Part shown: piece after piece, positions 44,717 to 45,312 of the stretch | Position numbering within the stretch: position 1 is the first letter of the stretch | How the letters are laid out: every line of letters begins with the position of its first letter | NCBI RefSeq assembly: GCF_028583425.1 | Contig: NC_072798.1 | Location: 15,378,501 to 15,442,500, forward strand | Direction of reading: 5' to 3' | Source of the DNA: Eublepharis macularius | Lineage: Eukaryota > Chordata > Lepidosauria > Squamata > Eublepharidae | Length of the DNA stretch: 64,000 nucleotides | Position numbers and translations under genes: made by a program | The notes under the pieces: generated by a model | Database searches by the model: none | What the model was told of the DNA's origin: nothing | The model's input: only the letters and a program-made list of their open reading frames with translations

Positions 44717-44729
44717 TGTCTATTGTTCT

Positions 44730-45012
44730 ATGTATTGTCGAAGGCTTTCACGGCCGGAGAACGATGGTTGTTGTGGGTTTTCCGGGCTGTATTGCCGTGG
44801 TCTTGGCATTGTAGTTCCTGACGTTTCGCCAGCAGCTGTGGCTGGCATCTTCAGAGGTGTAGCACCAAAAGACAGAGATGTCTTTTGGTGCTACACCTCT
44901 CTGTCTTTTGGTGCTACACCTCTGAAGATGCCAGCCACAGCTGCTGGCGAAACGTCAGGAACTACAATGCCAAGACCACGGCAATACAGCCCGGAAAACC
45001 CACAACAACCAT
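44730..45012. mobile_element. Palindromic retroelement-end element, copy B (283 bp)
   Basis: Same structure as copy A at 11462 but inverted: unpaired end TATTGTCGAAGGCTTTCACG first, then arms of about 113 bp. It has the same off-centre 25-nt direct repeat (GTCTTTTGGTGCTACACCTCT) in the middle. Flanked by the exact 13-bp duplication TGTCTATTGTTCT (44717-44729, 45013-45025). Confidence 0.9.
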
Positions 45013-45312
45013 TGTCTATTGTTCTGTTGGGTATAATTTGAAATTTCATTTATTAAATAAATAATGCAAAAAAATAATTCCAGTTAAAACCAAAATAAAA
45101 TATCTAAATCCCTTTCTGTATTCAGTACATCATGACGAATCAACGCTACGGCAGAGCAACCAAAGCATTCTTGCTGGGGAAAAAGCCCACTGCCTAGACA
45201 CAATGCCCCTTTGCATCTGGGTGCCTTCATCAAGTTTCAATCTCATCCCCTGCTGCTGAAATGAGCCCAGAAAGCAGCTCTTTGGTGAGCTGGGAAATCA
45301 TGTTCTGATTTA

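What the first reader, a model, noticed from the sequence alone, without database searches (positions are those of the whole stretch)
44717..45025. Copy B has the same off-centre junction as copy A, inverted, with its own 13-bp target duplication
The centres of copies A and B are identical when one is reverse-complemented: both carry the same 25-nt direct repeat (CTTTTGGTGCTACACCTCTC) placed off-centre. Independent fold-back insertions would not share that junction. So the palindrome existed once and was then copied to at least two places 33 kb apart. The duplication TGTCTATTGTTCT differs from that of copy A, ruling out a segmental duplication.
Basis: seen in the sequence. Interest (0 to 1): 0.85.

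Follow-up and report, generated by a model that had tools for sequence, protein, structure and literature searches.

The report
Two-armed Penelope retrotransposon hairpin insertions
The palindrome is a short insertion made by a Penelope-type jumping gene, one of well over a thousand in this genome that mostly form afresh at each site, apparently by copying the same RNA onto both cut DNA strands, so matching centres alone do not show that one palindrome was copied.

Summary
Copies A and B are the same asymmetric palindrome in opposite orientation, differing by two substitutions, each with its own target duplication. It is not a new kind of element. Both arms are the 5' UTR plus ORF start of a Poseidon-type Penelope-like element (PLE), head to head. 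One arm ends at ORF +119 (with the 34-nt "tail"), the other at +85. These correspond to the two reverse-transcription start sites reported for the Anolis PLE.

A centre pattern matches 1,748 times (control 13). Of 89 parsed loci, 86 were scored with exactly one tailed and one tail-less arm, and target duplications are mostly 12-15 bp. Junctions are diverse, yet the same junction recurs at unrelated sites built from different source alleles, so it forms repeatedly. Both arms of a locus carry the same source allele in 81 of 81 scorable loci.

Best explanation: both cut target strands are extended on PLE RNA, one from each start site, probably on the same RNA, and the two cDNAs are joined. The exact A/B junction is unique to A and B, 33 kb apart. 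They are probably not independent. Local gene conversion is at least as likely as copying of the palindrome as a unit; unresolved.

The parts
44717..44729 (.). left target site duplication TGTCTATTGTTCT of copy B
44730..44763 (-). 34-nt tail of the tailed arm (ORF +86 to +119, antisense); outer end corresponds to the RT start site at ORF 111-118 of Anolis PAc
   Evidence: PMC11167929 read
44764..44879 (-). rest of the tailed arm: ORF start (MPATAAGETSG...), hammerhead-type region and 31 nt upstream of the ATG, antisense
44880..44897 (+). 18-nt filler (GTCTTTTGGTGCTACACC) at the junction, read as a snap-back copy of the end of the tailed arm
   Evidence: filler length; the snap-back origin is inference
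44898..45012 (+). tail-less arm, sense; ends at ORF +85, taken as the second RT start site
45013..45025 (.). right target site duplication of copy B
11446..11461 (.). left target duplication of copy A (16 bp shared; boundary bases ambiguous)
11460..11574 (-). copy A, tail-less arm
11575..11592 (-). copy A, the same 18-nt filler
11593..11741 (+). copy A, tailed arm
11739..11754 (.). right target duplication of copy A
45310..45620 (-). copy C: one-armed copy of the same PLE (tail, ORF start, about 190 nt of upstream pLTR), used as reference; both boundaries approximate

Best explanation
Copy B is a short two-armed insertion of a Poseidon-type Penelope-like retrotransposon. The PLE enzyme cuts both target strands with a stagger of about 13 nt. 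Each target 3' end then primes a cDNA on PLE RNA, one strand starting at ORF +119 and the other at ORF +85. In the 68 loci measured both cDNAs stop 24-50 nt upstream of the ATG (a few others end inside the ORF), and they are joined head to head, directly or through a short filler. Shown here: the arms, the two end sites, the target duplications, the one-tail rule, the diverse and recurrent junctions, and the shared source allele of the two arms. Inferred: that the enzyme does this in vivo, that one RNA molecule serves both strands, the order of events, and that the filler is a snap-back. Such palindromes arise anew at most sites. A and B share a unique junction and are probably linked by a local event, most likely gene conversion between neighbouring copies.
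For: The arm aligns to the PAc template RNA (score 112, against at most 25 for 200 shuffles), with the ATG, hammerhead region and both end motifs in register. PAc starts RT at ORF 111-118 and at a second site, with the tail between them, and extends both strands (PMC11167929). 1,748 palindromic centre matches genome-wide against 13 in the control. 86 of 89 parsed loci, from 96 examined, have one tailed and one tail-less arm. In the 40 position-ordered C1 loci, the two exceptions with both arms present (L075, L093) lack a target duplication. Shared flank length is at least 12 in 79 of 86 loci, against 21 of 1,720 flank-swapped controls. Allele concordance is 81 of 81 against a shuffled mean of 45.8 and maximum of 61. 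There are 33 junction classes in 54 loci, and the six recurring classes other than A/B each mix both source alleles.
Against: No transcript, protein or autonomous copy was examined in this genome; the endonuclease-family search did not complete. In vitro, PAc showed no difference in start site between strands, whereas here the two arms nearly always differ. Rfam does not call a hammerhead in the arms. Seven of the 96 loci were not parsed, and some one-tail loci also lack a clear target duplication (in one search L071, L076, L092, L105). Microhomology at filler-free joins is only modestly above random blunt joins (mean 1.44 against 0.95). The allele test rests on one site; two loci have a third base in one arm there (L057, L082) and L073 has a deletion. 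Two of the three samples come from searches that favour short centres.
Confidence: 0.72

Rival explanations
1. One reading: the palindrome is itself a mobile unit that was transcribed and retrotransposed whole, giving A and B.
For: The A/B junction with its 18-nt filler is unique to these two loci, which have different target duplications. They differ by only 2 substitutions. L077 and L078 share a junction string with an unusual base at different target sites 2 Mb apart, though a variant source RNA would do the same.
Against: Three other complex junctions occur at one independent site each: L024 and L019 once; L116 twice, but with identical left flanks, so a DNA duplication. Recurrent junction classes mix source alleles.
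Confidence: 0.25
2. Gene conversion between two independently formed neighbouring palindromes copied the centre of one onto the other.
For: A and B are inverted near-identical repeats 33 kb apart, homologous only inside the element. The full junction is found nowhere else.
Against: No converted tract boundary is visible because the arms are almost identical. Of nine neighbouring pairs of centres under 250 kb on C1, seven differ; the two that match are duplications: one lies within a single locus (L077) and the other has identical target duplications.
Confidence: 0.45
3. A and B converged: the same two-step junction formed twice by chance.
For: The first hairpin step (GACA-GAGA-TGTC) is a hot spot found with and without fillers in other loci, for example L011, L014, L024, L040. 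L012 has the same second step.
Against: The full junction is seen at only two sites in 2.24 Gb, and these happen to be 33 kb apart.
Confidence: 0.25
4. Self-priming (snap-back) of a single cDNA, or of an antisense RNA, makes the whole second arm, as proposed for rotifer PLEs (PMC3846280).
For: Fillers at 25 of 68 measured centres and tight hairpin loops at others. Both arms share the source allele.
Against: A snap-back of the tailed cDNA should run through the tail, yet the second arm stops at about +85 in 86 of 89 loci. In 27 of 68 loci the tail-less arm reaches further 5' than the tailed arm, by 11 nt in one class, and its cDNA cannot supply the tail. The hairpin of L127 has no loop at all.
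Confidence: 0.15

Closest known systems
Poseidon_Ac (PAc), Penelope/Poseidon-clade PLE of Anolis carolinensis (PMC11167929)
   Same: Homologous 5' end of the ORF with the hammerhead region at the ATG. The ends of the arms fall on the homologues of the reported RT start region and of the other end of the tail. Both target strands are cut and extended.
   Different: The paper reports tandem copies and does not, in the parts read, derive short head-to-head palindromes or a one-start-site-per-strand rule. It saw no start-site difference between strands in vitro.
Pen2a/Pen2/Pen3 Penelope elements of the rotifer Adineta vaga (PMC3846280)
   Same: Inverted pLTRs with a short target duplication, a 31-bp tail optionally on one of them, head-to-head junctions and palindromes.
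   Different: Those described in the passages read have an ORF or captured DNA between pLTRs and low copy number. Here only two truncated arms remain, in well over a thousand copies. Self-priming was favoured there.
Fold-back elements and MITEs (DNA transposons with long terminal inverted repeats; recalled)
   Same: Long inverted repeats with flanking duplications.
   Different: Ends here correspond to reverse-transcription start sites, the two arms have different ends, the duplication is about 13 bp, and the arms are retroelement sequence.

Membership tests
Penelope-like elements (Penelope/Poseidon clade) | sequence homology to a characterised PLE | tested here: met
   Arm against PAc template: score 112, maximum of 200 shuffles 25.
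Penelope-like elements (Penelope/Poseidon clade) | tail of 30-40 bp between two RT start sites, optional at insertion ends | tested here: met
   34-nt tail on one arm of 86 of 89 parsed loci; homologous positions.
Penelope-like elements (Penelope/Poseidon clade) | inverted pLTRs flanked by a short target duplication | tested here: met
Penelope-like elements (Penelope/Poseidon clade) | hammerhead ribozyme at the pLTR/ORF boundary | tested here: inconclusive
   Core CTGAAGA...GAAACGTC aligns with the PAc hammerhead region, but no Rfam hammerhead match, and the regular expression did not fit its one-base spacing.
Penelope-like elements (Penelope/Poseidon clade) | RT plus GIY-YIG endonuclease ORF in an autonomous partner | not tested
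   Copies A and B carry only the ORF start; the genome search for PF01541 did not complete.
Fold-back/MITE DNA transposon | two equivalent termini cut by a transposase | tested here: not met
   The two ends are different sites, about +85 and +119, in 86 of 89 parsed loci.
microRNA hairpin (suggested by shape) | Rfam match at the gathering score | tested here: not met
   All nine matches over 44700-45040 are below gathering score, eight of them to microRNA families.

The most novel reading that the evidence does not exclude
One PLE RNA molecule templates the insertion of both target strands at once: each protomer of the dimeric enzyme initiates from a different one of two start sites on the same RNA. 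The second site, and hence the tail, would exist because two polymerases must share one template. Palindromes would then be the normal short product of this double target-primed reaction rather than accidents.
Probability: 0.5. Interest if true: 0.75.

Novelty: new member of a known kind. Interest (0 to 1): 0.55.

Why it matters
How Penelope-like elements insert is largely open, and their tails and inverted repeats are long-standing oddities. More than a thousand short palindromes in one genome act as a natural insertion assay. The sampled ones say that each event uses both start sites once, that both arms come from one source, and where the two cDNAs are joined. It also warns that identical palindrome junctions can be hot-spot products and are not proof of descent.

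Tried and rejected
Bacterial and viral collections gave nothing useful: the junction and arm patterns had no match in genome contigs or viral contigs. Short patterns gave 8 viral-collection loci; I read 1,500 bases of one (L001), saw no similarity beyond the short match, took the rest for chance matches by pattern length, and dropped all eight. The microRNA matches in Rfam were rejected as hairpin shape. Segmental duplication was rejected for A/B by target duplications, but it explains L022/L023 and L025/L026 (same duplications), L116/L129 and, by matching flanks, several C1 repeats. A tree of arms was not built because the arms are nearly identical; allele concordance was used instead. Loose tail matching gave false two-tail calls and was replaced by alignment. 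Its three allele mismatches were looked at again: L073 has a deletion, L082 a third base, L097 no left arm. A claim that the cDNA ends mark the RNA 5' end was dropped, because the search patterns limit the extents seen and L117/L127 end inside the ORF.

Rows dropped: of the 50 centres listed (of 1,748), 40 were fetched. Left out: the duplication pair already held as L023/L022, one centre inside L077, one that looks non-PLE, and the last six. Of the 48 matches, 30 were fetched, all with 0 or 1 mismatch. Dropped before counting: L046, L047 (re-fetches of A and B), L023, L026 (duplicate twins); 7 of 96 loci not parsed; L060, L061 not in the 54; 15 of 83 junctions not usable (the 83 leave out L077). 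In the tail-end sample (20 of 10,221 places, about 14 distinct after removing those with the same flanks), 5 are clearly two-armed within 460 bp and a sixth (L124) is complex; the others run on into longer PLE sequence or end otherwise. None of the titles or abstract openings listed by seven paper searches states the one-tail-per-insertion rule for short palindromes; full texts were not read, except PMC11167929 (parts 1-3 of 4 plus passages) and PMC3846280 (passages plus the discussion section).

Full report
Observation. Copy B at 44717-45025 and copy A at about 11446-11754 are the same asymmetric palindrome in opposite orientation. They differ by two substitutions, and each sits in its own target duplication. 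The shared off-centre repeat is an exact 21-mer at a 23-bp step, not 25 nt.

Identity. The arm aligns to the template RNA of PAc, the Poseidon Penelope-like element of Anolis (score 112 against a maximum of 25 in 200 shuffles). It covers 31 nt upstream of the ATG in the tailed arm, the ATG, the hammerhead region and the ORF start (MPATAAGETSGTT...). One arm ends at ORF +119 and the other at +85. In PAc, reverse transcription starts in an AC-rich stem loop at ORF 111-118 and at a second nearby site; the genomic tail is the sequence between them; and the protein cuts and extends both strands (PMC11167929). Copy C in the same window (about 45310-45620) is a one-armed copy.

Genome-wide picture. 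The window lies in a held 2.24-Gb genome. A similarity search gave 1,487 candidates, of which 40 were scored; all 40 matched in both orientations. The pattern CAGAGATC-N0-19-GATCTCTG matches 1,748 times against 13 for the control (one of the 50 listed looks unrelated), and the exact tail end occurs 10,221 times against 0. I read three samples: 30 best matches to B, 30 loci with the inner hairpin of the A/B junction at 0-1 mismatch, and 40 centres in position order on contig C1. After removing re-fetches and duplicate twins, 96 loci remained. Of these, 89 could be parsed, and 86 have exactly one tailed and one tail-less arm. The three others are L075, L093 and L021; the last is one-tailed. In the C1 sample, alignment gives 35 of 40 with one of each (one of these, L097, has a damaged arm). 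One locus has two tails (L075) and one has none (L093), both without a target duplication, and three lack an arm; several one-tail loci also have no clear duplication (L071, L076, L092, L105). Shared flank length peaks at 12-15 bp: at least 12 in 79 of 86 loci against 21 of 1,720 swapped controls.

Junctions. Among 54 distinct loci of the first two samples there are 33 junction classes. Six classes besides A/B recur at unrelated sites, and each contains both alleles of a source polymorphism; their target duplications differ, except that none was found for L036. The same junction therefore arises independently. In one search, 43 of 68 measured joins have no filler and overlap by 0-3 nt (mean 1.44, against 0.95 for random blunt joins, so only a modest excess), and 25 carry filler of 1-90 nt. 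Two of the 50 listed C1 centres drawn at random share a junction string with probability about 0.024, duplicates included. The full A/B junction, with its 18-nt filler, occurs only at A and B. Other complex junctions are single-site: L024, L019, and L116, whose second copy has the same left flank and is a DNA duplication. One case that could speak for copying as a unit: L077 and L078 share a junction string with an unusual base, 2 Mb apart, at different target sites; a variant source RNA would explain it too, and it was not followed further.

Source of the arms. The two arms of a locus carry the same source allele in 81 of 81 loci with A or C in both arms, against 45.8 expected and at most 61 in 5,000 shuffles. 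Left out of the 81 are five of the 86, among them loci with a third base in one arm (L057, L082). L073, flagged as discordant by looser matching, has a deletion at that place. Concordance could come from one shared RNA, two RNAs of one source locus, or conversion between arms. Arm-specific changes remain in many loci, so conversion between arms is at best incomplete.

Mechanism. The most economical reading is double target-primed reverse transcription: one start site per strand, probably on one RNA, then joining of the cDNA ends. A pure snap-back of one cDNA does not fit, because the second arm stops at the other start site, and because in 27 of 68 loci the tail-less arm reaches further 5' than the tailed arm. 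L117 and L127 are joined inside the ORF with a loop of 3 and 0 nt; the loop-free one in particular fits end joining better than snap-back.

What links A and B. Their junction is unique and they are 33 kb apart. Local gene conversion between neighbouring palindromes, copying of the palindrome as a unit, and convergence through the same hot spot all remain possible. I favour conversion, with low confidence.

Comparison and novelty. Inverted pLTRs with a tail on one of them and a short target duplication are described for rotifer Penelope elements, where self-priming was proposed (PMC3846280). The kind is therefore known. What I did not find in the listings or the two papers read in part is the near-strict use of both start sites, one per arm, across the sampled minimal insertions, with both arms from one source.

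Noticed in passing
window 5224-5431: Another near-perfect inverted repeat (99-nt arms, 91% complementary, 10-nt spacer), not matched by the PLE sequence.
   Followed up: no
window 15445-16281: A cluster of further inverted repeats (84-109-nt arms, 83-94% complementary), not matched by the PLE sequence.
   Followed up: no
genome contig C1, about 1.3-8.3 Mb (L109-L128): Several PLE copies share flanks with each other (L109/L110, L112/L114/L115, L119/L123, L121/L122, L124/L125), pointing to recent segmental duplications or assembly duplicates; L116 has a twin about 241 Mb away on the same contig.
   Followed up: partly
L077 and L078: L077 is a PLE palindrome with a 100-bp tandem repeat across its centre. 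It shares its junction string, with an unusual base, with L078, 2 Mb away at a different target site.
   Followed up: partly
L117 and L127: Shorter PLE palindromes joined at about ORF +42 to +47 with loops of 3 and 0 nt.
   Followed up: partly
class CACCAAAAGAGATCTCTGTC (L054, L056, L057, L062, L063, L067, L068): Seven loci with this junction all have the tail on the same side, unlike the neighbouring class, which occurs both ways round; unexplained asymmetry.
   Followed up: no
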